DNA from: Aliarcobacter cryaerophilus ATCC 43158
Lineage (GTDB): Bacteria; Campylobacterota; Campylobacteria; Campylobacterales; Arcobacteraceae
Direction of reading: 5' to 3'
NCBI RefSeq assembly: GCF_003660105.1
Contig: NZ_CP032823.1
Coordinates: 1,364,001-1,428,000 of the forward strand
Length of the DNA stretch: 64,000 bases
Both the position numbers and the translations under genes were made by a program. Position 1 is the first letter of the stretch; every line of letters starts with the position of its first letter. A model generated the notes under the pieces. The model did not search any database. It was not told where the DNA came from and was given only the letters and a program-made list of their open reading frames with translations. Shown in pieces: positions 7,121 to 62,316 of the stretch.

Positions 7121-7132
7121 AAGGTCAAATTT

Positions 7133-7831: not shown

Positions 7832-7871
7832 AAATAGCAAACAGTTAAGGGGTTTTTAAGAGATTTTCTCT

Positions 7872-7877
7872 TATAAT
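7872..7877 (+). promoter_or_regulatory. Probable -10 box of the tRNA operon
   Basis: A TATAAT box lies 35 bases before the mature 5' end of tRNA-Ser. The two tRNA genes are separated by two bases and probably share this promoter. Confidence 0.5.
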
Positions 7878-7912
7878 TCCCGTCCTGATTTTATGAACTT
7901 AAAATTAGAAAC

Positions 7913-8003
7913 GGACAGTTGGGTGAGTTGGCTGAAACCACCTCCCTGCTAAGGAGACGTACTGGTAACGGTACCGAGGGTTCAAATCCCTCACTGTCCG
8001 CCA
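7913..8003 (+). tRNA. tRNA-Ser (anticodon GCU)
   Basis: The acceptor arms GGACAGT and ACTGTCC pair completely, with G as discriminator and CCA encoded. The anticodon stem CTCC/GGAG carries GCT at 7948-7950. A long variable arm lies between the anticodon stem and the GGTTCAAATCC T-loop, as expected for a class II tRNA. It reads AGC/AGU serine codons. Confidence 0.97.
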
Positions 8004-45670: not shown

Positions 45671-46311
45671 TTATCTTTTTCTAAAATTTAAACTTTTTAG
45701 TAAATCACTTTTAGATATAAATTCATTATCATTTATATCAGCAATTGTTCTTGCTACTTTTAAAACTTTATTTATACTTCTAAATGATAAAGAGTAATTT
45801 ACTCTAGCTTTTTCAAGTATATCAGAACTCTCGTTATCTAAAATACAATACTTTTTTATATCTTTATCACTTAGTTTTCCATTTAACTCTTTTTGTCCTC
45901 TATTTTTTTGTCTTATAAAAGCTTTTATTACACTTTCATGAAGTTCTTTTGAGCTTACGATATTTTTATTATCGCTAAAACTATCATTCATCACTACATA
46001 TAAATCAATCCTATCTAAAAATGGTTCACTAAGACGATTTTTATATCTTTGTACTTCAAAATCACTACATCTACACTCTTTCATACTTGAAAGTTTATTT
46101 CCACAAGGACAAGGATTCATGGCACTTACAAATATGAATTTTGTCTCATATAATATCTTACTATTTACTCTTGATATTAATATCTTATTATCCTCAAGTG
46201 GTTCTCGTAAAGCTTCTAAAATATTGCTAGGGAAATGCGGTAACTCATCAAAAAATAGAACTCCGTGATTACTCAAAGCAACTTCTCCCATTTTTGCATT
46301 TGAACTTCCTT
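45671..46311 (-). pseudogene. comM: 3' part of comM (yifB), cut off by the Tn7-like element
   Basis: This is the C-terminal half of the magnesium-chelatase-like AAA+ protein ComM/YifB, a DNA branch-migration helicase in natural transformation. It starts within the GGG-SSNAKMGE segment and includes Walker-B-like GVLFFDELPHF, the AMNPCPCG Cys motif, CRCSDFEVQRYKNRLSEPFLDRID and the C-terminal RSINKVLKVARTIADI helix. The codons before the internal ATG at 46291 (GSSNAK) are still in frame up to the transposon edge. The 5' part is at 61440-62316; joining the two at the duplicated AGGAA restores one continuous frame. Confidence 0.95.
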
Positions 46312-46447
46312 GTAATTCTCAACAATAATTGCGAATATAACTATTGATATGTATTCTTTTAATCTTAACTTATTTATTAAAAGTTGCGAATAAATTACTA
46401 AATATTGCTACTAAATTTATTTACTCAAAAATAAATGCGAGTAGATT
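46312..46447 (+). repeat. tnsA-proximal transposon end with TnsB-type sites
   Basis: The terminal TGTAATTCTCAACAATAA is followed by repeats around TTGCGAATA at 46330-46338 and 46385-46393 and a weaker AATGCGAGTA at 46435-46444. The first copy begins 18 bases from the end, the same spacing as at the other end. These are candidate TnsB-binding sites. Confidence 0.8.
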
Positions 46448-46480
46448 TTAAAATAAAAAGATTATCAAGAAATTAATATT

Positions 46481-46558
46481 ATGACTGGTAAATTTCAAGA
46501 TTATCCTCTTGAAGGTTGGTCTCAAGATAAAATCAATGAACATTTGAGCAAAAAATAA
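46481..46558 (+). CDS. Possible 25-residue microprotein
   Basis: An ATG-started frame of 25 codons (MTGKFQDYPLEGWSQDKINE then HLSKK) uses a balanced mix of residues unlike the surrounding AT-driven frames. No good ribosome-binding site is seen, and it could be the tail of a lost gene. Confidence 0.2.
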   Translation: MTGKFQDYPLEGWSQDKINEHLSKK

Positions 46559-46587
46559 CTTTAATATAAAGATAAATTAAAAAATAT

Positions 46588-46646
46588 TGACAAAATAAAT
46601 ATAAGAGTGTAGAATCCTATTAGCAATTAACACTATTAAGTGCTAA
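46588..46646 (+). promoter_or_regulatory. Promoter with a CIRCE-like (HrcA) operator
   Basis: TTGACA (46588-46593) and TAGAAT (46610-46615) are 16 bases apart. Directly after follows TTAGCAATT-N9-AAGTGCTAA (46620-46646). The CIRCE consensus is TTAGCACTC-N9-GAGTGCTAA; the left arm matches 7 of 9 and the right arm 8 of 9, with exact spacing. The heat-shock repressor HrcA binds such sites, usually in front of groESL or hrcA-grpE-dnaK. Here the next gene is the 80-residue protein at 46866. Confidence 0.72.
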
Positions 46647-46865
46647 TTGTAATGTTTTATTTTAAAGACTTGGCGGTTAAAAAATAAAACTTTTAAAAAA
46701 AGGTTTTACTTTAATAAAGTAATTATTGGTTTTGCTATGCAATTAACAGACTACAATAACGTATTAAAATATTTTTTAATTATAGTTGATTAAATCTTTT
46801 TTTATTCTTTAAATGAAAATAATTTATTACAAATTGTAGCAATTCATATATAAAGGATAAGAAAT

Positions 46866-47108
46866 ATGAACAAAAAACAATCTTCTCAACAAATGGCTTC
46901 TACTGCATCTCAAGTTTTAAGAGACAAAAATTCTTCTGCAATTCAAAAAGAATTAGCAGGATCTGTGCTTTCTCAATATAGTTCTAATAAACAAACGGGC
47001 GCTCAAATGGAAACAACAGCATCAAAAGTTTTAACAAGCGATAAGTATAATGACCTAACAAAAGGGTTAGCAGGATCTGTGCTTTCTCAAGCAAATAAAG
47101 AACGATAA
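46866..47108 (+). CDS. 80-residue internally duplicated protein of unknown function
   Basis: The protein consists of two similar halves: QMASTASQVLRDKNSSAIQK-ELAGSVLSQ and QMETTASKVLTSDKYNDLTK-GLAGSVLSQ. Short Ala/Ser/Lys proteins with this A-S-K-VL...LAGSxLSQ duplication are familiar to me from mobile elements and defence islands in many bacteria, without known function. It is soluble and has a good ribosome-binding site (AAAGGATAAG). It precedes tnsA by 52 bases and lies over 200 bases downstream of the CIRCE-like promoter, which may drive it. Confidence 0.7.
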   Translation: MNKKQSSQQMASTASQVLRDKNSSAIQKELAGSVLSQYSSNKQTGAQMETTASKVLTSDKYNDLTKGLAGSVLSQANKER

Positions 47109-47160
47109 TAAATATAATATACACACTTTTAAAGTGTGTATATTTATAAAAAGGTCTAAA

Positions 47161-47799
47161 ATGCCTATACGTAAAATACCTAAAAATTATAGAAGCGTTA
47201 CTGGTACTTTCCCAAGTTATAAGAATAAACGTAATATCTTTTATGAATCTCTTCTTGAAAGAGATTTTTATTTATTGTTAGAATTTAATTATGATGTAAT
47301 TTCTTATGAAGAACAACCTTTTAGAATTTATTATCAAAGATCCAAATCTACTTATAGATATACTCCAGATGTTTTAGTTCACTACAATTCAGAATTAAAT
47401 CTATTACCATGTGTATTTGAGATCAAAATGAGTGATGAAATTAAAGAAAAAAAAGTATTTTTTGAAGAAAAGTTTAATCAAATTGAAAAATATATAAATA
47501 TAAATGACTTAGATTTTAGAATCTTTACAGAACTTGATATAGATAAAATTTATTTAGAAAATGCAATGTTTCTTTATAGATATAAAGATTTAAATAATAA
47601 AACTATTTCAAAAAATATTTTAGAAAAAATGAAACTTTTTCAAGAAATATCAGTAAATGATTTATTACAACATTTTTCATCAAATAAATTTGAACAAATG
47701 GAAATACTACCATATATTTGGCAACTAATTTTTTTAAATAAAATTGTTATAGATATGTATATTAAGATAACAAATAGTTCTGTTATAAAGGCTAAATAG
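47161..47799 (+). CDS. tnsA: Transposase endonuclease subunit TnsA
   Basis: TnsA (212 residues) cuts the 5' ends of the transposon and, with TnsB, makes Tn7 transposition cut-and-paste. The N-terminal nuclease domain has a restriction-enzyme-like site: Glu33 in SLLERDF, Asp70 in RYTPDV and Lys89 in VFEIK. The C-terminal 90 residues form the winged-helix part that contacts TnsC. The ATG at 47161, preceded by AAAAAGGTC, gives the normal family start; a reading from 47134 adds nine residues without support. The tnsB start follows the stop directly. All catalytic residues are present. Confidence 0.9.
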   Translation: MPIRKIPKNYRSVTGTFPSYKNKRNIFYESLLERDFYLLLEFNYDVISYEEQPFRIYYQRSKSTYRYTPDVLVHYNSELNLLPCVFEIKMSDEIKEKKVFFEEKFNQIEKYININDLDFRIFTELDIDKIYLENAMFLYRYKDLNNKTISKNILEKMKLFQEISVNDLLQHFSSNKFEQMEILPYIWQLIFLNKIVIDMYIKITNSSVIKAK

Positions 47800-49674
47800 A
47801 TGGAAAAAATAAGTTTAAATATTGGTTCAAAAATTTTTGTGAATAATCAAGAATATGAAATAAAAAAACAAATAGATTTAAAAACTATTTTAGGTTTAAA
47901 TTTATTGACAAGTAAATTAGAAAATATCTCAATAAATCATATTAAAAATGAAAAACCATCATCTAAATTGATAATAAATGAAGATATACCAGAAGAACAT
48001 TGGATTGAAGCAAAAAATAGACTAGAAATCATTACACCTCTTCTTTCAAGAAAAACCACAAAAAATGAAATAGAAGATATTGCAAATAAAAATAATTTAC
48101 ATATTAGTACAATTTACAGATGGATTGTTCAATATAAAGAAAATCCTCTTTTAAGTTCACTTTTACCAAAACATTTATCAAAAGGGGGAAAAGGAATTCT
48201 AAGAACAAATGAAGAAACAGAATTAATTATTCAAAAATCAATTAATGACTTATATTTATCTCAACAAAAGTTTTCAGCTAGAAAAGTCTATTTTGATATA
48301 GTAAGAAAATGTAAAAATGCAAGAATTACTCCTCCTAGTGAAAATACTGTTAGAAGTAGAATAGCTAAAATTGAAGAAAAGAAAAAAATAAAATATAGAG
48401 AAAGTGCAATGCTTGCTGATAGAAAATATAGAAACACAGATGGTATGTTTCCAGAAGGTAAATATCCACTTGATTTTATTCAAATTGACCATACTCCTAT
48501 GGATATTGATATAGTTGATGAAATATATAGAAGGTCTATTGGAAGACCTTATTTAACTTTAGCAATTGATGTCTATAGTAGAATGATTACAGGCTTCTAC
48601 ATAAGTTTAGATGAGCCCAGCTATTTCTCTGTTAGCCAATGTATAAGCCAATCAATACTTACAAAGGAGAAATACTTAAGAGAAATAGGAATTGAGGGAA
48701 AATGGTATATTTATGGAATTCCAAGAGCTTTAGGAATAGATAATGCTCAAGAATTTCGTTCGAAAGATTTACAAAGAGTTTGTGAAGAATATGGAATAAC
48801 TATCTCATGGAGACCTGTTGCAAGACCCCAATTTGGCGGGCATATAGAGAGAATGATCGGTACAGCAATGAATGAAATACATACTCTTCCAGGTTCTTTA
48901 TTTTCATCTATACAAAAAAGAGGAGAATATGATTCTGAAAAAAAATCAATTTTTACACTAAAGGAATTAGAAAAGTGGTTTGCAAATTATATAATCAATC
49001 AATATCACAAACATATTCATTCAGCAATAAGAATGACTCCTGAAAAAAAATATGAATTAGGAATATTTGGAGATGATGATAATCCAGGCAGAGGTTTACC
49101 TGAGAAAATTTCTAATGAAGATTATTTTAAAATATCTCTACTTCCTACAATAGAAAGAACAATACAACAGTTTGGTGTAAAAATTGATAATATTGTTTAC
49201 TATTCTGATATTTTAAGACGTTGGATTAAAGCAAAAGATAAAGACAATAAAGCTAAAAAATTTTTGTTTAAAAGAGACCCTAGAGATATAAGTGTTATTT
49301 GGTTTTATGACCCTACAATTAAGAATTATTTTGAAGTTCATTACAGAAATATTTCTTATCCACCTATTTCCATTTGGGATTTAAGAAATATCAGAAAATA
49401 TTTAGATGATAAACATCAAAAAGACTATGATGAAACTGTATTATTTAAAACTTACTATAAATTACAAGAAATTCAAAAAGAAGCTGCTAAAAAGACAAAA
49501 ACTGTAAGAAGAGAACAAGAAGCAAAAGAAATTAGAAAAAATAGAAAAGAATTTGATGATATAAAAATAAAATCAACAAAAAATATTTCAATAGAAAGCA
49601 ATACAAACAATGAGACTTCTACTTTTAATGATTTATTTAAAGATATTAAACCTTTTGATGAGATTGAAATATGA
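47800..49674 (+). CDS. tnsB: DDE transposase TnsB
   Basis: TnsB (624 residues) recognises the end repeats and joins the 3' ends to the target. After two helix-turn-helix regions (about 70-190) the RNase-H-like core carries Asp230 in DFIQIDHTPMDI, Asp314 in GIDNAQEF and Glu350 in FGGHIERM, the DDE triad with family spacing. A beta-barrel domain and a Lys/Glu-rich C-terminal tail, the part that contacts TnsC, follow. It starts directly after tnsA and overlaps tnsC by four bases, so tnsABC and tniQ form one operon. Confidence 0.95.
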   Translation: MEKISLNIGSKIFVNNQEYEIKKQIDLKTILGLNLLTSKLENISINHIKNEKPSSKLIINEDIPEEHWIEAKNRLEIITPLLSRKTTKNEIEDIANKNNLHISTIYRWIVQYKENPLLSSLLPKHLSKGGKGILRTNEETELIIQKSINDLYLSQQKFSARKVYFDIVRKCKNARITPPSENTVRSRIAKIEEKKKIKYRESAMLADRKYRNTDGMFPEGKYPLDFIQIDHTPMDIDIVDEIYRRSIGRPYLTLAIDVYSRMITGFYISLDEPSYFSVSQCISQSILTKEKYLREIGIEGKWYIYGIPRALGIDNAQEFRSKDLQRVCEEYGITISWRPVARPQFGGHIERMIGTAMNEIHTLPGSLFSSIQKRGEYDSEKKSIFTLKELEKWFANYIINQYHKHIHSAIRMTPEKKYELGIFGDDDNPGRGLPEKISNEDYFKISLLPTIERTIQQFGVKIDNIVYYSDILRRWIKAKDKDNKAKKFLFKRDPRDISVIWFYDPTIKNYFEVHYRNISYPPISIWDLRNIRKYLDDKHQKDYDETVLFKTYYKLQEIQKEAAKKTKTVRREQEAKEIRKNRKEFDDIKIKSTKNISIESNTNNETSTFNDLFKDIKPFDEIEI

Positions 49675-50576
49675 AAAATAATGAACATTTAGATAATTTA
49701 CTTCCAATTGTTAGAGAAAAATTAAATTTATCAAATGAAGATAGAAAAGAATTCATTCTAGAAGAAAAATGGATAACTTATCCTAATGCAAAAGAAATCT
49801 TAGAAAAATTAGAATTTTTGTATAGTCATCCAAAAAAAAGTAGAATGCCATGCATGTTAATAGTGGGAGCAACAAACAATGGGAAAACATCTATTATTAA
49901 TAAATTTATAAAAAACCATCCTCCTTATGAAAATGAAGAAGAAACAATAACTCCTGTTTTATGTATTGTTGCACCTGAAACTGGTTCTATAAGTGATTTT
50001 TTTAGCAAAATATTGCAAAACCTTTGTGTTCCTTATAGAAATGGTGATAAAATAAATAAGAAAAGAGAATTAATTGATCACTATTTTAAAATATGTGATA
50101 TAAAAATTCTAATAGTCGATGAAATTCATAATATACTTGTTGGTGCTGTTTCAAAACAAAAAGCCTTTATGAATTCTTTAAAAAATTTGAGTACTGAACT
50201 TCAAATACCGATAGTAATAGTTGGTATTCCAGATGCTTTACACGCTACAAATACAGATGAACAAATAAATAATAGGTTTAAACCAATTGCTCTTAAAAAA
50301 TGGCAATTTGATAGAAATTATTTATCTTTGTTAGCAAGTTTAGAAAAAACATTACCATTAAAAAATGCTTCTAATATTTATTCAAATAAAGAATTAGCTG
50401 AATATGTTTTTGATACAAGCGAAGGTTATATAGGTGAAATTATTGAATTAATTACTCAAGCTTCCTTATATTCAATTGACAATCACATTGAAAAAATTGA
50501 TATAAAATCTCTAAAAAACTCCGGTTTTACGAAACCATCTCTTAGAAAACATATAAATAATATTTTAGATCTATGA
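49671..50576 (+). CDS. tnsC: AAA+ target-selection ATPase TnsC (TniB-like)
   Basis: TnsC (301 residues) couples target recognition to the transposase and forms ATP-dependent filaments on DNA. Walker A is GATNNGKT (residues 66-73), Walker B is ILIVDE (Asp150-Glu151), with sensor motif VIVGIPDA and an arginine in NNRFKP. The protein is shorter than Tn7 TnsC (about 555 residues) and lacks its N- and C-terminal extensions, resembling TniB and the TnsC of other compact Tn7 relatives. It overlaps tnsB and tniQ by four bases each. Confidence 0.9.
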   Translation: MKNNEHLDNLLPIVREKLNLSNEDRKEFILEEKWITYPNAKEILEKLEFLYSHPKKSRMPCMLIVGATNNGKTSIINKFIKNHPPYENEEETITPVLCIVAPETGSISDFFSKILQNLCVPYRNGDKINKKRELIDHYFKICDIKILIVDEIHNILVGAVSKQKAFMNSLKNLSTELQIPIVIVGIPDALHATNTDEQINNRFKPIALKKWQFDRNYLSLLASLEKTLPLKNASNIYSNKELAEYVFDTSEGYIGEIIELITQASLYSIDNHIEKIDIKSLKNSGFTKPSLRKHINNILDL

Positions 50577-51154
50577 TTAATAATGTTACAAGATATATTG
50601 ATTTAAATAATAAAAAATTTCGTATAAAACCAAAACCTCAAGAAGATGAACTATTAAGTTCTTGGTTAGTTCGAGTTGCACGAGCTCATTTAACACTTAC
50701 AACATCGTTTACAAATATGCATTTTAAAGAATATAAAAATAATATTATATGGCAAAGAGATTTAGATATTTGGTGTCCAGATAAATTGATTGATAGAATT
50801 TCATTTAAAAGTGGATATTCTGAAGAAATAATTTTCAATATGACACTTAGAAGTTTAGAAGGAATAATTGCTGATAAAATTACGGGGAAATCAAATACTC
50901 CAAACATAAGAGCTTTAGGGAATTATTGTCATATAAAAACAAAGGGTGGATTAATGTTTTGTTCACAATGTTTAAAAAAAGATAAAATTCCTTACTTTAG
51001 AAAAATATGGAGATTAAAAGAATATACGATATGCAAGGAACATAATATTGAACTATTAGATAGATGTACTAACTGTTTAACACCTCTAACTATTTACAAA
51101 TCTTTTCAAGAAAAAGATTTTACATTTTGTTATAAATGTGGAAATAAACTATAA
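50573..51154 (+). CDS. tniQ: Short TniQ protein (TnsD N-terminal domain only)
   Basis: The 193 residues match the TniQ domain: KPQEDELLSSWLVRVARAH near residue 22, the W-C-P-D segment near 67, and two zinc fingers (Cys130-Cys133-Cys154-His157 and Cys165-Cys168-Cys186-Cys189). It ends right after the second finger. Target-specific TnsD proteins have a further 200-300 residues that read the attachment site; these are absent. A compact TniQ of this length is otherwise known from CRISPR-associated Tn7 relatives, but no CRISPR or cas gene is present. What directs insertion to comM is therefore unclear. Confidence 0.88.
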   Translation: MINNVTRYIDLNNKKFRIKPKPQEDELLSSWLVRVARAHLTLTTSFTNMHFKEYKNNIIWQRDLDIWCPDKLIDRISFKSGYSEEIIFNMTLRSLEGIIADKITGKSNTPNIRALGNYCHIKTKGGLMFCSQCLKKDKIPYFRKIWRLKEYTICKEHNIELLDRCTNCLTPLTIYKSFQEKDFTFCYKCGNKL

Positions 51155-51220
51155 TTATTTAATAAATTATTCCCTTACCACTATTATAAGATAATACCTA
51201 AACCAATTTTAGGAGAAAAT

Positions 51221-52159
51221 ATGAAAATAGACAAGTTACTACAAGATTTTTTATTTCATTGTAAATTTGAGAAAAATCTAAATCCAAAAACAATTGCTGC
51301 TTATACAATGGATATAGAGCAATTTAAAACATTTAAAAATATTAAATCTATGTGTATTAATGAAGTTAATAAAGATATATTGAAAGAATATATTCAGCAT
51401 TTATATACTTTAGAATTAAAACCAAAATCAATTAAAAGAAAACTAGCAACATTAAAAGCTTTTTTTACACACCTAGAATTTGATGAAATTATCACTATAA
51501 GTCCATTTAGAAAAATGAGAGTTTCAATAAAAGAACAAAAATTACTACCAAAAACAATTGAAATTCAAAATATTAGAAAACTATTTAAATATATTTATAA
51601 AATTAAATTTGATTCTAATAACATAGAACAATATTCATATAAAGCACTTACAAGAGATATTGCTATTTTAGAATTATTGTTTGCAACGGGACTTAGAGTG
51701 TCAGAAGTAAGTAATATTAAATATAATGATTTTAATTTAAGTACTGGAAATATCAAAGTTTTAGGTAAAGGTGGGAAAGAAAGAAATATACAAATTTGTG
51801 ATCAGGAAGTGAAAACAGTTTTAAAAGAATATTTATCAATATTTAAAGATGAGATACTTAAAAAAGAGTGGTTTTTTATTAATAGATTAGGTAATAAATT
51901 TACAGAACATTCTATTGCAAATATGATAAAAAAATATCAAACAAAAGCAAATATACAACAACATTTAACTCCACATATGTTTCGTCACAGTTTTGCAACT
52001 ATGCTTCTTGAAGAAGGTGTTGATATTAGATATATACAAGGGATGCTGGGACATGCATCTATCTCAACAACTCAAATTTATACTCAAATAAATATGAAAC
52101 AACAAAGAAAACTTTTATCAACAAAACATCCGAGAAGAAACTTTCAGTTCCTCTCTTAA
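51221..52159 (+). CDS. XerC/D-type tyrosine recombinase, cargo of the transposon
   Basis: The 312 residues hold an N-terminal SAM-like core-binding domain (FLFHCKFEKNLNPKTIAAYTMDI) and a catalytic domain with ATGLRVSEV (first Arg), GKGGKERNIQI (Lys on the beta hairpin), HMFRHSFATML (His-x-x-Arg) and LGHASISTTQIYTQ (His and Tyr). It has no arm-binding domain, so it is Xer-like rather than phage-integrase-like. It lies 60 bases upstream of the restriction-modification genes. Recombinases in this position elsewhere invert or shuffle specificity genes, but only one complete specificity gene is seen here. Confidence 0.88.
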   Translation: MKIDKLLQDFLFHCKFEKNLNPKTIAAYTMDIEQFKTFKNIKSMCINEVNKDILKEYIQHLYTLELKPKSIKRKLATLKAFFTHLEFDEIITISPFRKMRVSIKEQKLLPKTIEIQNIRKLFKYIYKIKFDSNNIEQYSYKALTRDIAILELLFATGLRVSEVSNIKYNDFNLSTGNIKVLGKGGKERNIQICDQEVKTVLKEYLSIFKDEILKKEWFFINRLGNKFTEHSIANMIKKYQTKANIQQHLTPHMFRHSFATMLLEEGVDIRYIQGMLGHASISTTQIYTQINMKQQRKLLSTKHPRRNFQFLS

Positions 52160-52219
52160 CAGAAAATATCCTATTAAAATGAATACATAATAATAAAGAA
52201 TTATGGGATATACAATTAA

Positions 52220-55087
52220 ATGAAAACAATAAATAAATTAGCAGTTATAACAGAACAGGAATCAATCAACTATTTAACTAATTATTTTGTAAGTTATATA
52301 GAAGATATTAATGTAAATGAGAAAAATGTTGATTCTCATGTTCATTCAATTCTAAAAAATAAATTATCTTATACTTCGAAAGAAGCAGAGCTTGCGGTAA
52401 CTAAACTTAGAAATAGTGAAATTAAAATTCAAAGTAAGACTAAACTAGCAAGCGGAACAGGTGAAATTGATTGTGGAATATTTATAAATGATAAGTTAAA
52501 AATAATTATAGAAGATAAAGAACCCAAAGAATCAGTAGAGCTTGCGTTAAGTGAAGCAATTATTTATGCAAATGGGTTAAATGCAAAAGGAGAAGACATA
52601 AGGATAGTTATTGGATTTACAGGAATAGATATACTTTTGAGAGTATTAGATCATACATCCAATAGATGGGTTCCATTTTATATTAATGGTCAAGAGTTAA
52701 AAGCATTTCCTGGAAAATATATTTTAAATATAATATATTCTCAAAAAGATATTCATGGATTTGTAGTTGAGAATATTAAAGAAGATATAAATATTAGAGA
52801 TATAATATACAGTTTAAAAAATATTTATCGAACTACTGATCTCCAAAATGATAATCAAAAAACTATTGACTTTACAATTGCTTTTATTGGTTTAAAATCA
52901 ATACTAGAAAAATATAAAAACCAGGGTATTAGAGGTCTTAAAAATTGGAATAGCCTAAATAACAAAAATAATCCAAAAGATAATAATTCAGAAGATGATG
53001 AAGATTTAAGAGATAATTTAACATCTACCATTGATAAAATATTTGAAAAAATGTTAACAAAAGATATTTCCGAAGACTATACAGATCTATTTATAATAAA
53101 AGATAGTGAAAATACAGAAACTTTCAATTTTAAAAGAACACTTGAAACATTTCAAACGGACTATCATTTATTAAGTCTAAGAAAAATTTATACTGAAATA
53201 ACTAAATTGCATGATTTGCACGACTCAAAAATTGATCTATTTGGTGAAGTATATGAATCATTAGGAGAAAAAGATTTTAGGAAATCTTTTGGACAATTTT
53301 TTACAAGAAGACATATTATTAAAACTTTAATAGAACTAATGGAAATAAATGCTTATGATTTTATTGGAGAATTATATGAAGAAGTAGAAAATAAACAAGT
53401 AGTATCTAAGGCAAAATCTCCTAAAAATATTTGCGATCCTGCTTGTGGTACAGGTGGTTTTCTAACAGAATTTTTTAAATATATTAAAGATGAAGCTCAA
53501 AAGCATAAAAACTATAAAACTATAGATTTATCAAAATTAGCTTCAAGCTCTTTCTATGGATACGATATATATACAGCAAATGTTACGAGAACAAAGATCA
53601 ATATGTATTTATCGGGAGATGGATTTTCAGAAATTAGAAAAGCCGATACTTTACAAGATCAAAATATAAATAATAATAAATTCAATTATATAATTACAAA
53701 TCCACCTTATGGGAAAGGAACATATACTGTAAATTATTCTTTTCAAGAAGGAACTGAAACTGTCATAAAGCCTGTAATAAATAATCAAAGGTTAGAAGTT
53801 AATTTTCTTGTTAAAATAGTTGATATGTTATTACCAAAAGGAAGGGCTATGGCTATTATCCCTGATGGGATATTAGAAGCTACAACTTTATCACCATTAA
53901 GAGTTTGGTTATTAAAATACTGTAAAATTGAAAAGATAGTGAGTCTTCCTAAACATGCTTTTGCACCATACACACATGAGAAAACATATGCAATATTCTT
54001 TGAAAAAAGATTGATTCCATTGAAAGATATTAATCAAATAGAAAATGATCCTGATATTTGGAGTTATATTGTAGATAATGATGGTTTCGCAAATTCCGAT
54101 AAAAGATTTAGAACTGATAGAATGGATGAAAATGGTAAATATTTACATGACGAGTTTAGTCAGTGGAGAGGAATCGATGGAAGTACAAACGATTCTTTAA
54201 TAATTGAAAGATATAAAAGAAAAACTCAATTGAAAGGTGAAGAATTTTACAACGAATGGGAGGAAAAAATTGAAGGATTAAAGTATGGTTATATTTCATT
54301 AAAAGAAATCTTAAAAGACGAATTTATTACTTATCAAACTGTATCTGTAGAAGAAGTTTTAAGAAGACTGAATAGAGAAGTTGAAGAGAAAATTAATATA
54401 GAAAAGATTATTGAAAATATTGATACTTTAAATGATGAAGAAATTAGAGTAAAAGAAAAAATATTTGAAATTCTACAAAAAGATCATGAACTAACATTTG
54501 ATAGCAAAAAAGGAATTTTTAGAGATAATACGAAAACTGTTGAACCAAAAGCTTTAACTGTTAAAGATATAGTTGAAATTGTAAATAGCAATATACCTAA
54601 TAAAAATCTAAAAATCAAGCACTCAAAAGATCTAACAATAGATAAAGATGGAAGGTATACTTTAAAGAAATGTTATGAACAGATTTTAGAAATTGCTGGA
54701 ATAAATTATAACTTTAACAATAAGAATCCTAAATACTGGCTAAAAAGTGAAGAGGATTTTAAACCATTAACTTCAGTTCAACAATCTACTAAAATTAAAA
54801 AAATTTTCCAAAAAATTTATTTATTAAACTCGATAGAAGATATTATTGATTTAGAAGAAAATGAAATAAAAGAAGCCTACATTGAACAAATTGAAAATTA
54901 TGGTTTAGAATATGATTCTTTTAGGAGTAGTTTTATCGATAAATTAAATCCTATAATTAGAAAAACATTGGTATGTACCCCAGAAAAATATTTTAGAGAA
55001 GCTAAAACACAATCTTTAATTCTTGAAGATTTTGAGAAAGAAAATAAAGAATTAATTTTAGAGATTAAAAAGTTATTTGGAGAATAG
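52220..55087 (+). CDS. Fused nuclease and N6-adenine methyltransferase (type IIG/IIB-like)
   Basis: The 955 residues combine restriction and modification. Residues about 1-200 resemble the type I HsdR N-terminal nuclease: Asp84 in GTGEIDCGIF and Glu98-x-Lys100 in IIIEDK form a PD-(D/E)xK site. A helical linker follows. The methyltransferase core (about 340-620) has GQFFTRRHI, motif I DPACGTGGF near 405 and motif IV NPPYG near 493. The C-terminal 300 residues are helical. No helicase is present, so it would work without ATP-driven translocation, like BcgI-type enzymes, with a separate specificity subunit encoded next. Confidence 0.82.
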   Translation: MKTINKLAVITEQESINYLTNYFVSYIEDINVNEKNVDSHVHSILKNKLSYTSKEAELAVTKLRNSEIKIQSKTKLASGTGEIDCGIFINDKLKIIIEDKEPKESVELALSEAIIYANGLNAKGEDIRIVIGFTGIDILLRVLDHTSNRWVPFYINGQELKAFPGKYILNIIYSQKDIHGFVVENIKEDINIRDIIYSLKNIYRTTDLQNDNQKTIDFTIAFIGLKSILEKYKNQGIRGLKNWNSLNNKNNPKDNNSEDDEDLRDNLTSTIDKIFEKMLTKDISEDYTDLFIIKDSENTETFNFKRTLETFQTDYHLLSLRKIYTEITKLHDLHDSKIDLFGEVYESLGEKDFRKSFGQFFTRRHIIKTLIELMEINAYDFIGELYEEVENKQVVSKAKSPKNICDPACGTGGFLTEFFKYIKDEAQKHKNYKTIDLSKLASSSFYGYDIYTANVTRTKINMYLSGDGFSEIRKADTLQDQNINNNKFNYIITNPPYGKGTYTVNYSFQEGTETVIKPVINNQRLEVNFLVKIVDMLLPKGRAMAIIPDGILEATTLSPLRVWLLKYCKIEKIVSLPKHAFAPYTHEKTYAIFFEKRLIPLKDINQIENDPDIWSYIVDNDGFANSDKRFRTDRMDENGKYLHDEFSQWRGIDGSTNDSLIIERYKRKTQLKGEEFYNEWEEKIEGLKYGYISLKEILKDEFITYQTVSVEEVLRRLNREVEEKINIEKIIENIDTLNDEEIRVKEKIFEILQKDHELTFDSKKGIFRDNTKTVEPKALTVKDIVEIVNSNIPNKNLKIKHSKDLTIDKDGRYTLKKCYEQILEIAGINYNFNNKNPKYWLKSEEDFKPLTSVQQSTKIKKIFQKIYLLNSIEDIIDLEENEIKEAYIEQIENYGLEYDSFRSSFIDKLNPIIRKTLVCTPEKYFREAKTQSLILEDFEKENKELILEIKKLFGE

Positions 55088-55088
55088 T

Positions 55089-56168
55089 ATGAAAACTTTA
55101 CTAAGTGAAATAGCTTATACAGTTAGAGGAGAGGTTATTTCAGAAGAAAATATTTATTATAATTATAATAAAAATGGAATTCCTGTGTATTCATCAAATA
55201 CAAAAAATCAAGGATTGATTGGAACTGTAAATATGTCATTTTACAATGACTCTAATGCAAAGGGAGAAGCAGGTGAAATAACATGGACTACGGATGGTAA
55301 TGCTGGTAATTTTATTTTAAGACATGAACCTTTTCTTTTTACTAATGTATGTGGGAAAATTATAATAAAGAAGAAATATCAAAAAATTATTTCTCCGCAA
55401 TGGTTGGCTTTATATCTTAATTTAGAATCTAAAAAATATGTTACTTCTAAAGGTGGAAATTCTAAATTAATGAAAGAACAAGTTGATAATATTGAAGTTA
55501 ATATTATTAATATAAATTTACAAGACAAACTAGTTAAAGAATTTGATATAAGAATAAATAAACTTAATTTATTAATTAGTATTCTAAAAAAACTTAATAA
55601 TCAAATTAGTAAAAAAATTATTTCAAAAAGTAAAATCTTTTTAATGAAAGAACTATTTGATATTACATCTGGTCGTAGAATTACACAAAATGATATATAC
55701 AATAATTCTGGTGATTTTCCAGCTGTAACATCTCAAACAAAGAATGAAGGCATAGCTTGGTATGGAGATAGAAAATGGCTTACAAGCATAGAAAAAAATT
55801 CAAAAAAAGTTTATGTTAGTGAGGAATGTTTAACCTGGACTAAAGATGGGGCTAAATGTGGAACTATATTTCATAGAGATTATGAGTTTTACCCGAATGA
55901 CCATTGCGGAGTTTTAATTCCAAAGGTTGAGTTGAATTTGAAATGGGTAAGACAACAAATACAACCAATACTTTATAATCAGGTAATAGCAAAAGATGCT
56001 CAAGGTATGTTGTATGAAGAACAAATTGCTAATATAGAAGTTGATATTCCAGTTGATGATAATGGTGAGATTAATTTAGCAATTCAAAATAAAATATATT
56101 CAGAGTATCATAAATTGATACAAATAAAAAAGAATTTAGAAAATATTTTAGAAAAGTACTCTATATAA
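55089..56168 (+). CDS. hsdS: Restriction-modification specificity subunit (HsdS-like)
   Basis: The 359 residues contain two target-recognition halves. The first (about 1-180) has IPVYSSNTKNQGLIG, GEITWTTDGNAGN and a coiled-coil spacer; the second (about 195-355) has FDITSGRRITQNDI, FPAVTSQTKNEGIAW, CLTWTKDGAKCGT and a C-terminal coiled coil. The halves align with each other, as expected for a bipartite target. The ATG at 55089 with TTGGAGAA before it is preferred over a TTG at 55077 inside the preceding gene. It lies one base after the nuclease-methyltransferase stop. Confidence 0.87.
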   Translation: MKTLLSEIAYTVRGEVISEENIYYNYNKNGIPVYSSNTKNQGLIGTVNMSFYNDSNAKGEAGEITWTTDGNAGNFILRHEPFLFTNVCGKIIIKKKYQKIISPQWLALYLNLESKKYVTSKGGNSKLMKEQVDNIEVNIININLQDKLVKEFDIRINKLNLLISILKKLNNQISKKIISKSKIFLMKELFDITSGRRITQNDIYNNSGDFPAVTSQTKNEGIAWYGDRKWLTSIEKNSKKVYVSEECLTWTKDGAKCGTIFHRDYEFYPNDHCGVLIPKVELNLKWVRQQIQPILYNQVIAKDAQGMLYEEQIANIEVDIPVDDNGEINLAIQNKIYSEYHKLIQIKKNLENILEKYSI

Positions 56169-56770
56169 TTCTTTATTATTAATGATTCATTCTATCGAAA
56201 TAGTTTTAAAATAATCTGTAATTTTTATTGCTTCATAGAAGCTTTTTATCAACAAAATATTTCTATTTATATTGTAAATTTTGCAAATAAAGAAATGCAA
56301 CAAGAAGCAGTTAATCAATTGTTTAATTTGAAAAATTAACGAGTAAATACAAGACAAAAAAAAGTGTTCAGATTTACAAGTACATATAATTCTGTGCCAA
56401 CCGACTCAATTTTTAAATAATTTAGATAAATCTTTTATAAAAAATCAAACCCTATAATATAATAACTATAAAGGTATAAAAACCTTTGTACTTATACAAA
56501 TGAGTCCTTTTATAGAGTACCATAAATATTACATAGAGTTACACATATCATAAAAAGCTACCAACAAAGATAAAAAGGGAAATAATATAATTTATCTTTT
56601 AAAAATTTTATAAAAATTTAACAACTAACAACATATTTAACTAAAAATCATTTTTTGTAAGTACTACATAATAGCGTCAAATTTAGATTTATTATAGAAA
56701 TAACTTATTTTATATTAATTTGAAAAGAAAATTAACTATAATTCAAAACTTCAAACAAAAAGGAAAATAT
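56169..56770. other. 602-bp non-coding gap inside the transposon
   Basis: No gene is supported. The hsdS frame stays open for 56 further codons after its stop, but the peptide has no recognisable features. A hairpin AAAGGTATAAAAACCTTT lies near 56470. The rest is AT-rich DNA. Confidence 0.5.
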
Positions 56771-57427
56771 TTGGAAAAAATATTTTTATTGTTACTATTA
56801 ATAGTATCATCAATATATGCTGAATCATTTAGTAAATCAAAAAAGATATTAAATGTTATATATAAAGATAATCAAACAACTTTTTATTGTGGTTGTAAAT
56901 ATGACCCATCAAATAAAAATAATATGATTGATAGAGATAGTTGTGGTTATGTTCCAAGAAATGAATTAACTAAAAAAGGTAAAATAAACGAAAGAACCAA
57001 TAGAATAGAATGGGAACATATAATGCCAGCTGAAAACTTTGGAAGACATTTACCTTGTTGGCGTGAAGGTGGAAGAAAAGCTTGTAAAAAAGACCCTTTA
57101 TTTAATAAAATGGAGGCTGATATGCATAATTTAGTTCCAGCAATTGGTGAATTAAATGCTGATAGAAGTAATTTAAGATATGGAGCTGATAAACCAAAAG
57201 TTGGAATGTATGGAGAATGTAAATTTGAAGTAGATTTTGATGCAAAAAGAGCTTATGTAAAAGATGAAATAAAAGGTGATATAGCAAGAACATATTTATA
57301 TATGAGTAAAACATATAATATCAATTTATCAGACCAAGAAAAAAAATTAATGGAAGCTTGGGATAGACAAGACCCAATAAGTGAATGGGAAATTGAAAAA
57401 AATAAAAGAATTGAAAAGTATAAATGA
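56771..57427 (+). CDS. Exported EndA-type endonuclease I
   Basis: The 218 residues begin with a signal peptide (EKIFLLLLLIVSSIYA) from a TTG start with an AAAAAGGAAAA ribosome-binding site; an upstream TTG at 56720 would add 17 basic residues and mask the signal. The mature protein matches endonuclease I: CGCKYDP, NRIEWEHIMPAENFGR with the catalytic His-Asn region, a MEADMHNLVPAIGELNADRSN metal site, and paired Cys residues. Such enzymes degrade DNA in the periplasm or outside. A bidirectional terminator separates it from two small exported protein genes on the other strand. Confidence 0.9.
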   Translation: MEKIFLLLLLIVSSIYAESFSKSKKILNVIYKDNQTTFYCGCKYDPSNKNNMIDRDSCGYVPRNELTKKGKINERTNRIEWEHIMPAENFGRHLPCWREGGRKACKKDPLFNKMEADMHNLVPAIGELNADRSNLRYGADKPKVGMYGECKFEVDFDAKRAYVKDEIKGDIARTYLYMSKTYNINLSDQEKKLMEAWDRQDPISEWEIEKNKRIEKYK

Positions 57428-57435
57428 TACTATTC

Positions 57436-57468
57436 AATAAGGTAAAATTATAATATTTTTACCTTATT
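57436..57468. terminator. Bidirectional terminator after the endonuclease gene
   Basis: A perfect 12-bp stem (AATAAGGTAAAA with TTTTACCTTATT) around TTATAATA lies between the stop at 57427 and the convergent small gene ending at 57480. Confidence 0.8.
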
Positions 57469-57479
57469 AAAATATTTTC

Positions 57480-57605
57480 TTAATGGCAATGATAAACACC
57501 AGTTTTATGGTCAGTATGACATCCAGAAGAATCTGTTCTACCAGAATGAGCAAATAAAGATGCTAAAATACCTAATCCTAAAATTACTAAAAATGTTTTT
57601 TTCAT
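57480..57605 (-). CDS. 41-residue exported YHYH-type peptide
   Basis: An ATG preceded by CAAGGAG opens a frame of 41 residues: a signal peptide (KKTFLVILGLGILASLFA) followed by a 23-residue mature part starting HSGRTDSSGCHTD and ending GVYHCH. The His/Cys spacing (H-S-G-R-T-D-x-x-G-C-H) is the small YHYH-domain motif, often found next to excalibur and nuclease genes. The His and Cys pairs suggest a metal or disulfide site. It is 70 bases downstream of the excalibur gene on the same strand. Confidence 0.75.
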   Translation of the reverse strand: MKKTFLVILGLGILASLFAHSGRTDSSGCHTDHKTGVYHCH

Positions 57606-57675
57606 TTTAACTCCTTGTGTAAATTTTTTAATTGTATCATATAAATTAAAGAATGCATTAAATTATTATTGCATT

Positions 57676-57900
57676 TTATTTACAAATTGTTTCACAAGGA
57701 ATTCCATCTTTATCCCTATCTAATCTTGTTAATCCACATTGTGTTAAATAAAACTTTGCTTCAGCACAACTTTTCATTTCTTTACAATATTTTTTTCCTT
57801 CGCATTTAAACCCTTGTTTCTTATCTTCTTGTTTAGTTTTTTTACTTTCAGCAGAGAATAAAGAAACTGAAACTATCATTATTATAAAAATCTTTTTCAT
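57676..57900 (-). CDS. Small exported Excalibur-domain protein
   Basis: This 74-residue protein has a signal peptide (KKIFIIMIVSVSLFSA) and a C-terminal Excalibur domain: CKEMKSCAEAKFYLTQCG then LDRDKDGIPCETIC. The D-x-D-x-D-G-x-x-C calcium-binding-like loop and the Cys pattern are diagnostic. The domain occurs in secreted nucleases and small exported proteins and is thought to bind calcium. Lying between an endonuclease I gene and a YHYH peptide gene, it may assist or compete with the nuclease. Confidence 0.9.
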   Translation of the reverse strand: MKKIFIIMIVSVSLFSAESKKTKQEDKKQGFKCEGKKYCKEMKSCAEAKFYLTQCGLTRLDRDKDGIPCETICK

Positions 57901-57946
57901 AAATTAATTCCTTCACATTTTCTAAATTTTAACTAAATTTTAAAAT

Positions 57947-58336
57947 TTATTTTTCACAAACTGGATTTTTAATATAAAAACCACATTCTTTGTTATCATT
58001 TATATAGTCATTATCAATTTTTAAATCACAAGATAAATCTTCATAAATCGCTTTATTATCTTTACATACAAGAACCACAGTAACTTCATTTTCATACTTT
58101 ACTTTTAAATCATAATCTTTAAAATTTTCCATTAGTATAGAATCTTTTTTGATAAGAAATTCTATTACATCATCTACTGCGATATCTCTTCTTTCTATAG
58201 CATTATTCGCTCTTTTAGTAAGATTGTTTAGATTAGGTTTTAACTCAATTAAATCATCATTACTTTTTAAACTACAACCGCTTAAACTAATTAATAAAAT
58301 GATCAATAAACTTTTTTTAAATGTTATTATTTTCAT
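57947..58336 (-). CDS. Small lipoprotein of unknown function
   Basis: The 129 residues start with a lipoprotein signal: KSLLIILLISLSGC with the lipobox Cys. The mature part is charged, with a conserved-looking TKRANNAIERRDIAVDDVIEFL helix and several Cys near the end (DLSCDLKI, ECGFYIKNPVC). The ATG at 58336 is chosen because AAGGATTAGAAG precedes it; a reading from 58357 would overlap the phospholipase-like gene. No family is recognised. Confidence 0.65.
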   Translation of the reverse strand: MKIITFKKSLLIILLISLSGCSLKSNDDLIELKPNLNNLTKRANNAIERRDIAVDDVIEFLIKKDSILMENFKDYDLKVKYENEVTVVLVCKDNKAIYEDLSCDLKIDNDYINDNKECGFYIKNPVCEK

Positions 58337-58347
58337 ACTTCTAATCC

Positions 58348-59286
58348 TTATGCCCAATATTCTAATTTACCAGAAGATGTTCTGCCATTATCCAGATTCC
58401 AATCTGCAAAATAGTCTAAATTAGTAACATCATTACCAAATACTGCTTCATCTAAAACTTTCCAAGTTTGTTGAACTTGAGATACCACTTTATCAAATAT
58501 ATCATCATAGTGCATAGTCTGATTTCCAGGTACTTTTAAATTTTCAATAAATTCTTTTCTATTTACTTCTTCAAACTTAGGATATATTGCTCCAGAATTT
58601 AAACCTATTACATGTCTTGAGATAGTAGGAAAATTCTGAGTTTCTTCTATTGCTGATACCAATGAATGAAATCTCATATGCCATGTATCAAATTCAGGTT
58701 TGTTAATAGTATATTCATTAGCACTTAGAACTTCTAACATTTTACCCCAAACTAAAGAAATTGTTTTATTTAATTTATCAGTATCTCCATTATCACTACA
58801 CTCTTTACCAAATAAAGATAATTGTTCAGTTTCAAAAATTTCTCCATAACCTGTAATTTTTTTATAAATATAAACATCTTGATGCATTTCACAATTTCTA
58901 TGAGCTGATTCATTTCCTTCATAAGTACCTACTTTTAGCTCAACTACAGGATGAATAACAACATCTGTAACAATATGCCCAGCAAGACCACAGAGCCAAG
59001 CAAAAGCTTTTCTTTTATCCTCTTTATCTTTAATTGCTTTAACTTCTTCAATACCTTTTAAAATAAAAGATCTCGTTTTCATTTCTAAATGCATTAAATC
59101 TGCCCATTTTTTATGTTTTTTAGTCATTGCAAGATATGGATAATCTGGACTAACAGAACCCAACTCTGTAAAAGTTAAGTAATCTCCCAATGAAATAAGT
59201 GACTCTTTACTAAAACCTAATTTTTCTAATTCACTTTCATTAGATGCTTTATTTACAACAGTTAAATGTGCATACGCTCCTGCCAT
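58348..59286 (-). CDS. Zinc-dependent phospholipase C-like protein
   Basis: The 312 residues match the zinc-dependent phospholipase C fold: an N-terminal GAYAHLTVVNKA segment with the first His ligand, SVSPDYPYLA, a central FAWLCGLAGHIVTDVVIHPVVE with the H-x3-D metal motif, and CEMHQDVYIYKK. There is no signal peptide, so the protein is probably intracellular. The family includes phospholipases and many uncharacterised proteins; substrate is unknown. It has a strong AAGGGGAAAA ribosome-binding site and precedes the lipoprotein gene by 11 bases, probably in one transcript. Confidence 0.75.
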   Translation of the reverse strand: MAGAYAHLTVVNKASNESELEKLGFSKESLISLGDYLTFTELGSVSPDYPYLAMTKKHKKWADLMHLEMKTRSFILKGIEEVKAIKDKEDKRKAFAWLCGLAGHIVTDVVIHPVVELKVGTYEGNESAHRNCEMHQDVYIYKKITGYGEIFETEQLSLFGKECSDNGDTDKLNKTISLVWGKMLEVLSANEYTINKPEFDTWHMRFHSLVSAIEETQNFPTISRHVIGLNSGAIYPKFEEVNRKEFIENLKVPGNQTMHYDDIFDKVVSQVQQTWKVLDEAVFGNDVTNLDYFADWNLDNGRTSSGKLEYWA

Positions 59287-59339
59287 TATTTTCCCCTTTA
59301 TTTTATATAGATTATTAAAATTATTCTTTAAATATTAAG

Positions 59340-61045
59340 CTATTTAGTTATTTTTGTTATCAATCTAGAATACCATTCCTTTATTTTACTTTTATTTTCA
59401 TCTTTAGGATGCTCTAAAAAATCTTTGTTAAAAGTAAACTCTTCATAATTTTTTAGCCATCTTCCATTTTCATAAACAAAATTTCTTACTACTGATAAAT
59501 AATTGAAGTATCAATTTTGGAATAATCATTATCCCAAATAATTAAAGTACTCAATCCATCTACAAATACATCTCGTTCTATTTCAATTAATATAAAGTTT
59601 TTATTATTATATTCAATGGAAACAGCTAAATATTTTCTTTGTGTTTTATCATCAGCTAATTTAGCTTTTCTCCATTTCCTTTTTTTATTAATTTCATTTT
59701 CTGGCTTTTGAGGAAGATAATTTTCAAGTTGGATGTTAAAACTAAATTCTTCATTTTCTTTTGAATATTCAAATAACATATTTTTAAAATCTGTTAAATT
59801 TAAATATTCTCTATCATCATTCTTAGGATTTTCATTTTCAATCAAGCCACCAGCAGTATTCTCATCACCATTTGATTCAGAATCTTTTGTACTTAAATCA
59901 ATTTTTCTATCACTATTAAAATTTTCTTCTAACTGTGAAATATCTTCCTCATCAATATATTCTACAATTTTTATAATATCTTTAGATTTCAAATCTAATC
60001 TTTCCTCAAAGTCTTCAGATTCATTATTGATAGAAATAGGAGTAAAATCTTCTTTTGGTGTATTATTTGTAATCTTTTTAGATAATTTCTTTTTAGAAGC
60101 TTTTCTTTTTCTAACTATTCCTACTGGCTCATTTGTCTTATTTTTTCTTTCAATTTTAATGAATAAAGTTTCAAAATCATAAGTACTATCTTCATTTATA
60201 AATTTTAATACTAAAAATGAACCATCAGATAATATTTTAACTCTTGCATTTAAAGATATCTCCTCTATTATGGGAAAATCAACTTTGAGTTTCATCTCAT
60301 TTGAATTATTTAAATAACCTTTTTCTTGTTTTATTAATTTTATTTCTTGTGCACTTGCTGTTAAATTTCTTCTAACTTGATGCCAAGAATTATTTGAATA
60401 TTCATCTGTAGCATATCTATAGATATTTGAAGCATCATTTGTATTGGCATTTTGAGTTAATATAATTTCTTTAGAGTTTAAATTTATATGTGTTATATCT
60501 TTATATAAACCTTTTAATATAGAAGATTCTTCTCTTAATGATGCCGATAAAATTTGTTTTGTCATTGATGGTGTTGTAAAATAAAACCATCTAGCAACTT
60601 CATAATGAGGAATATATACATTCTTATTTGTATTTTCATCTTTTAAAATAAAATAATATTGCCCTTGAATATGATATTTAGCATTAAAGTTATCAATTTT
60701 TTTTGGAAAGTTTGGTAATACTAACTCTTGTCTCAATTCTGATATTTCAAATAACATTTTTGAGTCAACCTTTTCTAAATTTAATAGTAAATTAACTTTT
60801 GTACCAGCGAATGTATTAAGCTTCTTTTGATTATCAATAATTGAACCTATTGGAAAATTTGCCATATCTTTTAAATTTATATATACTAAGAAATATTCAG
60901 GATTCTCTTCTAACATTTCTTTTAGAATTAAAGCTAATTTAAAATTTGTTTCTTGTTGATAAATATTACCATATGAAAAAACCACAACTCTTTTATCTTT
61001 TGGAAAATAAGTTAATGAAAATTCTTCTAATTCTAAATCAGACAT
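59340..61045 (-). pseudogene. tnsE: TnsE-like target selector with a C-terminal frameshift
   Basis: The main frame (61045-59489) gives 518 residues. Near residue 150 it has VYIPHYEVARWFYF, near 470 KYLAVSIEYNNKNFILIEIE and GLSTLIIW. These match, by my recollection, IPxxExAR, the VLLEVD strand and the LST segment of Tn7 TnsE (538 residues). The frame stops at 59489, but a different frame continues as VRNFVYENGRWLKNYEEF, with LEHPKDEN and IKEWYSRL, to a stop at 59340, matching the HPK and helical end of TnsE. A single-base change between about 59492 and 59506 explains this. TnsE directs Tn7 to replicating DNA through the sliding clamp. Confidence 0.72.
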
Positions 61046-61439
61046 AACTATTCCTTAATATCAAAATAATTTTATACAAAAATTTTAAATCTCTTAAATT
61101 AAAAGATATTAAATATTTAAATTATATTTAAAATATTCTTCACATTAATAATATTTTAAAATTATAATAAATGATATTTACTTTAAGTTTAAATCTATAA
61201 TTTTATTAAAAAGGTAGCCATAACCACCTAAAAATCATATTTATTTAATTTAAGTGTATTGCGAATACTATTAAGATTATCTTAAGTTAAAAGACATTTT
61301 ACAAACAACATATTATCAATATATTTAAAATAAATAGATAAAAATTCATTTAGTTAAATTTTAAGAACTTATTTTTTAACAGTGTACTTTTAAATTCTCA
61401 TTATATTCTGAATATTCGCAACTTTTATTGAAAATTACA
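61046..61439. repeat. Distal transposon end with TnsB-type sites
   Basis: The terminal sequence on the minus strand is TGTAATTTTCAATAAAAG followed by TTGCGAATA (61421-61413), 18 bases from the end, mirroring the other end. A further TATTGCGAATA-type element lies at about 61257-61268. No gene is seen in these 394 bases. Confidence 0.8.
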
Positions 61440-62316
61440 TTCCTCCTCCAAATATAGAAGATTTTGTACTTGAATGGTGTGGGTTTCTAAAAGCTCTTGT
61501 GGGACTAAAATCAACATCTTTTAAATCAAGTGCTTGAAGTTTTGCTTTTTCAAGTATCTCTTCAAGATTCATAGGAGCTAAGATATATTGCAATCTTTTT
61601 GCTATCATTGATTTTCCACAACCTGGACTTCCTTCCATCAAAAAATTATGATTTCCAGCAGCACAAATAAGTGCTGCATATTTCGCCATATCTTGACCTA
61701 TTACATCCTTAAAATCTTCATCATACTTTTTATTATAAAAATATTGTTCATTTTTTAGATTTAAAACTTCATACTTAATTTGCTCTTTTTCATGCAAATA
61801 ATTATCTTTATCTTTACTTTTTATAAACTCTATCGCATTATTTAATGTATTTACAACATAAATATCAATATTTGGGATATTTCCTAATTTCTTAGCACTT
61901 TCCAAAGAGGTTACAACTCTTTTTAACTCTCCTTTTTTTGCCAAAGATAAAACTATTGCAAAAATATGACTTGTATCTTTTATTGTTCCATCAAGAGCCA
62001 ATTCACCAAAAAAGAAAAAATCATCAAATCCTATTTTACTCTCATCAAATAAAGCAACTTGTAGCGCAATTGGTAAATCAAAGTGTGAACCTTTTTTATT
62101 TAATTCACTAGGTGATAGATTTATTGTTATTTTTAGTGGTGGAAATTTAAAATTATTTAAAAGTAGTGCTGACTTTACTCTATCTTTTGATTCATTGATA
62201 CTAGTACTAACCATCCCAACTATTGTAAAACTTGGCATTCCTTTTGTGAATGTTGCTTCAACATCAATAATTGTGGCTTCAATACTATCAAGTGTGGCAG
62301 ATTTTATTACTTTCAT
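61435..62316 (-). pseudogene. comM: 5' part of comM (yifB), cut off by the Tn7-like element
   Basis: This holds the N-terminal Lon-like domain of ComM (TFTKGMPSFTIVGM, NLSPSELNKKGSHFDLPIALQV, FGELALDGTI) and the first half of the AAA+ domain with Walker A in EGSPGCGKSMIAKRL. It runs to FRNPHHSSTKSSIFGGG; the next codons come from the transposon and stop after one residue. Host sequence ends with the duplicated AGGAA (61444-61440). Both halves being intact up to the junction suggests a recent insertion. Without comM, natural transformation with divergent DNA would be expected to suffer. Confidence 0.95.

What the first reader, a model, noticed from the sequence alone, without database searches (positions are those of the whole stretch)
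59340..61045. A TnsE homologue at the far end of the transposon, with a C-terminal frameshift
The 518-residue product resembles TnsE in length and in several spaced motifs, and the missing about 50 C-terminal residues are encoded in another frame directly downstream. TnsE is rarely kept in Tn7 relatives, is normally next to tnsABCD in the same direction, and here lies 8 kb from tniQ on the other strand. The frameshift could be recent inactivation, a sequencing error or regulated recoding.
Basis: partly seen in the sequence, partly recalled or inferred. Interest (0 to 1): 0.8.

Follow-up and report, generated by a model that had tools for sequence, protein, structure and literature searches.

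The report
Broken TnsE in comM Tn7-like transposon
The gene is a real relative of TnsE, the protein that sends Tn7-type transposons into plasmids; it sits where such transposons inserted in the comM gene usually keep it, and this copy has lost the last third of its DNA-binding domain through a one-base frameshift that none of its relatives shares.

Summary
Window 59489-61045 (-) is a TnsE homologue. Its last 51 residues lie in another frame at 59340-59495 and are 60% identical to residues 525-574 of an intact 576-aa relative. The gene is the last one inside a complete 15,129-bp Tn7-like element (46311-61439) that splits comM and has a perfect 5-bp duplication. The fold of the intact relative's C-terminal domain matches solved TnsE (Z 14-15); the window's truncated protein matches only TnsE residues 387-479 (Z 7-8). 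About 36 homologous copies were found in the phylum. Four others are split, each at a different place, and the window's break has no slippery site, so this is decay or a sequencing error, not recoding. Indirect support for TnsE-type targeting: a related element lies both in comM and on a conjugative plasmid of one genome, and a 98%-identical right end lies beside a phage-like gene in another. More interesting in passing: five lineages of these comM elements share only TnsABC, TniQ and TnsE, and lack TnsF, which is essential for comM targeting by Tn6022.

The parts
59489..61045 (-). tnsE body, 518 aa: predicted OB-like N-terminal part, acidic disordered linker (about residues 316-413), first two thirds of the C-terminal DNA-binding domain
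   Evidence: Pfam TnsE_C; 56% identical to intact G059 protein; truncated AF2 model matches TnsE CTD residues 387-479, Z 7.2-8.2
59340..59495 (-). tnsE tail (51 codons and stop) in another frame; no early in-frame start codon
   Evidence: 60% identity to G059 residues 525-574, E 1.6e-15; present in frame in the intact relatives aligned
46311..46341 (+). left terminal inverted repeat TGTAATTCTCAACAATAATTGCGAATA...
   Evidence: sequence
61409..61439 (-). right terminal inverted repeat TGTAATTTTCAATAAAAGTTGCGAATA...
   Evidence: sequence; the near-identical copy in G028 ends at the same base
46306..46310 (.). target-site duplication TTCCT, left
61440..61444 (.). target-site duplication TTCCT, right
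47134..47799 (+). tnsA, 221 aa
   Evidence: Pfam TnsA N and C
47800..49674 (+). tnsB, 624 aa
   Evidence: rve and Mu-transpos_C; 68% identical to G059
49671..50576 (+). tnsC (TniB-type ATPase), 301 aa
   Evidence: Pfam TniB E 1.5e-66
50573..51154 (+). tniQ, only 193 aa; no trace downstream of the C-terminal domain seen in G195/G255
   Evidence: Pfam TniQ E 4.9e-20
61435..62316 (-). comM (yifB) 5' part, cut by the element
   Evidence: TIGR00368 positions 6-283
45671..46291 (-). comM 3' part
   Evidence: TIGR00368 positions 289-499
51221..52159 (+). cargo: XerC/D-like tyrosine recombinase, not TnsF
   Evidence: Pfam Phage_integrase E 1.2e-41; 97% aa / 96% DNA identical to a copy on the genome's second contig
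52220..56168 (+). cargo: Type I-like restriction-modification genes (methylase 955 aa, specificity 363 aa)
   Evidence: PADLOC
58348..59286 (-). cargo: zinc-dependent phospholipase C-like protein
   Evidence: Pfam E 2.8e-20

Best explanation
The gene is the TnsE-type target selector of a comM-inserted Tn7-like transposon. Shown: homology to TnsE, the same C-terminal fold in an intact relative, its place in a complete element, and loss of the tail from the reading frame. Inferred: as in Tn7, the intact protein recognises structures of replicating DNA, above all incoming conjugal plasmids, and calls TnsABC there, while a separate TniQ pathway inserts the element into comM. Most likely one base was lost recently in this strain, removing the last helix, strand and helix of the DNA-binding domain. 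The plasmid pathway of this copy is then probably off, while the transposase genes still look intact.
For: TnsE_C domain match. The only solved-structure sequence hit of the family profile is TnsE 9d5l, aligned through the tail (E 0.3). AF2 model of the intact relative: TnsE CTD Z 13.8-14.8 over 139-144 residues, next unrelated 6.5; truncated window model only Z 7.2-8.2 over 92-96 residues, ending at TnsE residue 479. The tail evolves like the body (59% against 56% aa identity), so the break is recent. Five of about 36 copies are split, all at different places: about profile position 345 (G302), 400 (G424), 430 (G057), 500 (G199) and 524 (window): recurrent decay. Two-site lifestyle: in G177 a family member lies in comM with duplication GCGGT, and a 98.7-100% identical copy lies on a 102.7-kb contig with Rep3, ParA, TraC, TraK, TraE, TrbI and a TrwB/TraD coupling protein. 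In G028 a right end with tnsE, 98% identical to the window's, ends at the same base beside non-comM genes, one with phage relatives.
Against: No reads were available, so a single-base assembly error cannot be excluded. No function was measured. The plasmid copy in G177 has unequal flanks (ACAAA / CAGAG), so it is not a clean single insertion, and it could also have arrived with the plasmid. The TnsE-bearing G413 element has two clean copies in the chromosome, not in a plasmid.
Confidence: 0.62

Rival explanations
1. The frameshift is an assembly or sequencing error; the strain carries an intact TnsE.
For: The tail is as conserved as the body and holds no further lesion; all near relatives of this subfamily are intact.
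Against: Seven orthologous flanking genes compared with G012 (about 2,300 aa) and the other core genes of the element show no frame break, so indel errors are not common here; the break is not in a long homopolymer. Split tnsE copies occur in other genomes too.
Confidence: 0.3
2. Programmed -1 frameshifting or phase variation makes both a short and a full TnsE.
For: The tail is open and conserved directly behind the stop.
Against: No relative has a break at this place; the overlap of the frames (about 20 nt) has no X XXY YYZ heptamer and no repeat tract; breaks in other copies lie elsewhere.
Confidence: 0.03
3. In this TnsF-less clade TnsE has taken over recognition of comM.
For: tnsABC, tniQ and tnsE are the only core genes shared by five TnsF-less comM elements.
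Against: The same TnsE family occurs in elements of the genus that show no comM next to tnsA (G001, G008, G017) and in G413, whose two insertions lie outside comM; TnsF-bearing comM elements also carry a (divergent) TnsE.
Confidence: 0.05

Closest known systems
TnsE of Tn7 (PDB 5d16/5d17, 9d5l)
   Same: C-terminal domain fold, similar length, carried with TnsABC, OB-like N-terminal part suggested
   Different: 17-20% identity in the CTD; encoded at the far end on the opposite strand; this copy lacks the equivalent of residues from about 480 to the end
Tn6022-type comM elements (AjTn6022, AbaR backbones; PMC10293859)
   Same: comM insertion, TnsABC, TniQ, tnsE on the opposite strand
   Different: No TnsF found in the element or the genome; TniQ of 193 aa instead of about 369 aa; TnsE of a sequence branch other than that of the TnsF-bearing relatives G012 and G055
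Intact homologue in Arcobacter sp. BM504 (G059, PKUK01000003.1)
   Same: 68% TnsB, 80% TniQ, 56% TnsE identity, also in comM, same gene order
   Different: tnsE intact (576 aa), but its tnsB carries an in-frame stop

Membership tests
TnsE | TnsE_C sequence domain (PF18623) | tested here: met
   Window 26.5 bits against cut-off 26.7 as an ORF, 28.8 in the genome search; intact relative 28.3, over the cut-off
TnsE | C-terminal domain fold of 5d16/5d17/9d5l | tested here: met
   Intact relative Z 13.8-14.8; window copy only its first two thirds, Z 7.2-8.2
TnsE | N-terminal PriB/SSB-like OB domains | tested here: inconclusive
   SSB and PriB chains at Z 4.7-5.6 over residues 18-127, within the background range
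TnsE | Complete reading frame | tested here: not met
   Frame breaks before the last 51 residues
TnsE | Directs insertion into conjugal plasmids / replicating DNA | not testable with these tools
   Only indirect: G177 and G028 copies
Tn7-like transposon | TnsA, TnsB, TnsC, TniQ, TGT...ACA ends, 5-bp duplication | tested here: met
Tn6022 group | Insertion in comM | tested here: met
Tn6022 group | TnsF next to TniQ | tested here: not met
   No TnsF match in the whole genome G000; TnsF profile gives no hit at E<=1 in the element, control G012 5e-196
Tn6022 group | tnsE on the strand opposite to tnsABC | tested here: met
   PMC10293859
Programmed -1 frameshift gene | Slippery heptamer in the overlap and conserved position in relatives | tested here: not met

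The most novel reading that the evidence does not exclude
A clade of comM-inserted Tn7-like elements in Campylobacterota reaches the comM site without TnsF, with a TniQ as short as 193 residues, so comM is recognised either by TniQ itself, by TniQ with a host protein, or with TnsE; TnsE serves as the second, mobile-DNA pathway and is repeatedly lost once the element is resident.
Probability: 0.35. Interest if true: 0.6.

Novelty: new member of a known kind. Interest (0 to 1): 0.38.

Why it matters
Nothing mechanistic is known of TnsE outside the Tn7 prototype (PMC11406308). This clade gives a diverse family of intact TnsE proteins, a natural truncation that removes part of the DNA-binding domain, and a genome in which a related element lies both in comM and on a conjugative plasmid. 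The same elements lack TnsF, which makes it directly testable how comM can be chosen without it.

Tried and rejected
Programmed recoding (no slippery site, no conserved position). The Xer-like gene at 51221 as a TnsF: it is 97% identical to a copy on the second contig, matches XerC/XerD models along its length and is missing from the sister elements. Remnants of a longer TniQ downstream of 51154: none. TnsE relatives in PLSDB plasmids, INPHARED phages and IMG/VR: none found. Relatives of the G028 flank in IMG/VR, plasmids and phages: only the ASCH-type gene matched, in phages. DNA search of the G028 flank across 150 relatives gave mostly short chance matches. The paper on TnsE conformational toggling (PMC4678854) is not held. 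VIA-align rows outside TnsE were at background level.

Full report
What is there. The window lies in a 2.1-Mb, two-contig genome. Its near relatives are Aliarcobacter and Arcobacter records, so the host is most likely an Aliarcobacter; the host name itself was not given. comM (yifB) is cut in two: its 3' part is at 45671-46291 and its 5' part at 61435-62316. Between them lies an element of 15,129 bp, 46311-61439. Both ends start TGTAATT, share a TTGCGAATA repeat, and are flanked by the same five bases, TTCCT. It holds tnsA, tnsB, tnsC and tniQ at the left, a restriction-modification system and other cargo in the middle, and tnsE as the last gene before the right end, pointing inwards.

The gene is TnsE. 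The 518-aa product matches Pfam TnsE_C over residues 462-511 (E 6.3e-6; over the cut-off in the genome-wide search). The match stops close to where the frame breaks. A homologue in Arcobacter sp. BM504 (G059) is intact, 576 aa, and matches the Pfam model to its end. A profile of nine relatives found a single solved-structure sequence at E below 10, TnsE 9d5l, weakly (E 0.3) but aligned over the C-terminal domain with the tail included. The AlphaFold2 model of the intact relative matches the three TnsE C-terminal domain entries at Z 13.8-14.8, with the next unrelated chain at 6.5. The window's own, truncated protein matches only residues 387-479 of those domains, at Z 7.2-8.2. In the model of the relative, the missing part is most of a helix (519-531), a strand (546-550) and a helix (561-574).

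The frameshift. The remaining 51 codons follow directly in another frame (59340-59495). They are 60% identical to the tail of G059 (E 1.6e-15) and differ from it about as much as the body does, so the break is recent. Every intact relative aligned has the tail in frame. In 397 genomes of the phylum the TnsE profile found about 36 copies in 33 genomes. Besides the window's, four are split, and all five breaks lie in different places. The overlap of the two frames in the window has no slippery heptamer and no long tract. Recoding is therefore very unlikely. Mutation and assembly error remain. Seven orthologous flanking genes and the core genes of the element are unbroken, which argues against frequent indel errors but cannot settle one base.

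Is its place odd? No. Published surveys report tnsE on the opposite strand in Tn6022-type elements (PMC10293859) and call TnsE almost universal in comM-targeting elements (PMC11406308). Here G059, G195 and G194 show the same far-end, opposite-strand layout; in G255 tnsE is also the gene nearest the comM 5' part, but tnsABC is turned round. More distant TnsE proteins on the opposite strand occur in Tn7-like elements of the same genus without comM beside tnsA (G001, G008, G017).

How it probably works. By analogy with Tn7, intact TnsE would direct the element into conjugating or otherwise replicating DNA, and another selector would bring it home to comM. Two findings fit. In G177 a family member lies in comM with a clean duplication (GCGGT), and 98.7-100% identical sequence lies on a 102.7-kb contig with replication, partition and F-type transfer genes; the plasmid copy is rearranged and has no matching flanks. 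In the Aliarcobacter MAG G028, a right end and tnsE start 98% identical to the window's stop at the same base, next to genes unrelated to comM, one of which has relatives in many phages. Neither proves that TnsE did it.

What is more unusual. Tn6022 needs TnsF for comM (PMC10293859). The window's element and four related comM lineages (G059, G195/G194, G255, G177) have no TnsF detectable by profile, whereas G012 scores 5e-196 with the same profile; nor has the window's genome. The only core genes common to all five are tnsA, tnsB, tnsC, tniQ and tnsE, and TniQ is just 193-195 aa in the window and G059. How comM is recognised in this clade is open. Absence by sequence does not exclude a strongly diverged selector.

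Verdict. A genuine TnsE in its usual place, broken in this copy.

Noticed in passing
46311-61439 and loci L007/L008, L080/L081/L088, L082/L083, L084/L085, L158/L159: comM-inserted Tn7-like elements without TnsF; only tnsA, tnsB, tnsC, tniQ and tnsE are shared by five lineages.
   Followed up: partly
50573-51154; L007 10548-11135: TniQ of only 193-195 aa in the window and G059, against 313-413 aa in other comM elements of the clade; no remnant of the missing part.
   Followed up: yes
51221-52159; L069 about 6905-7917: Complete Xer-like recombinase directly behind tniQ, 96% identical in DNA to a copy on the genome's 101-kb second contig, with a further 73% copy there: recently moved between element and that replicon.
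   Followed up: partly
L067 9228-13523 (G000 C1 about 201,200-205,500): A second Tn7-like element in the same genome (TnsB 44% identical), without a detected TnsE; its target site was not worked out.
   Followed up: no
L158-L162, L171 (G177): Related element in comM on the chromosome and, rearranged with a second tnsAB and an extra right-end piece, on a conjugative plasmid.
   Followed up: partly
L163-L166 (G413): Two 17.6-kb copies of a TnsE-bearing element, 99.99% identical, at two chromosomal sites with different clean duplications (GTATG, TTTAT); one lies beside flagellar-type genes, the other next to what looks like the right end of another copy.
   Followed up: partly
L007 7774-9639 (G059): tnsB of the closest relative carries an in-frame TAA at codon 109, so that element may be immobile.
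   Followed up: no
46866-47108: 80-aa ORF at the left end made of two near-repeats (ELAGSVLSQ / GLAGSVLSQ), function unknown.
   Followed up: no
58348-59286; L071 7648-8583 (G028 C197): Zinc-dependent phospholipase C-like cargo gene with its small neighbour recurs at 84% identity on another contig of the MAG G028.
   Followed up: no
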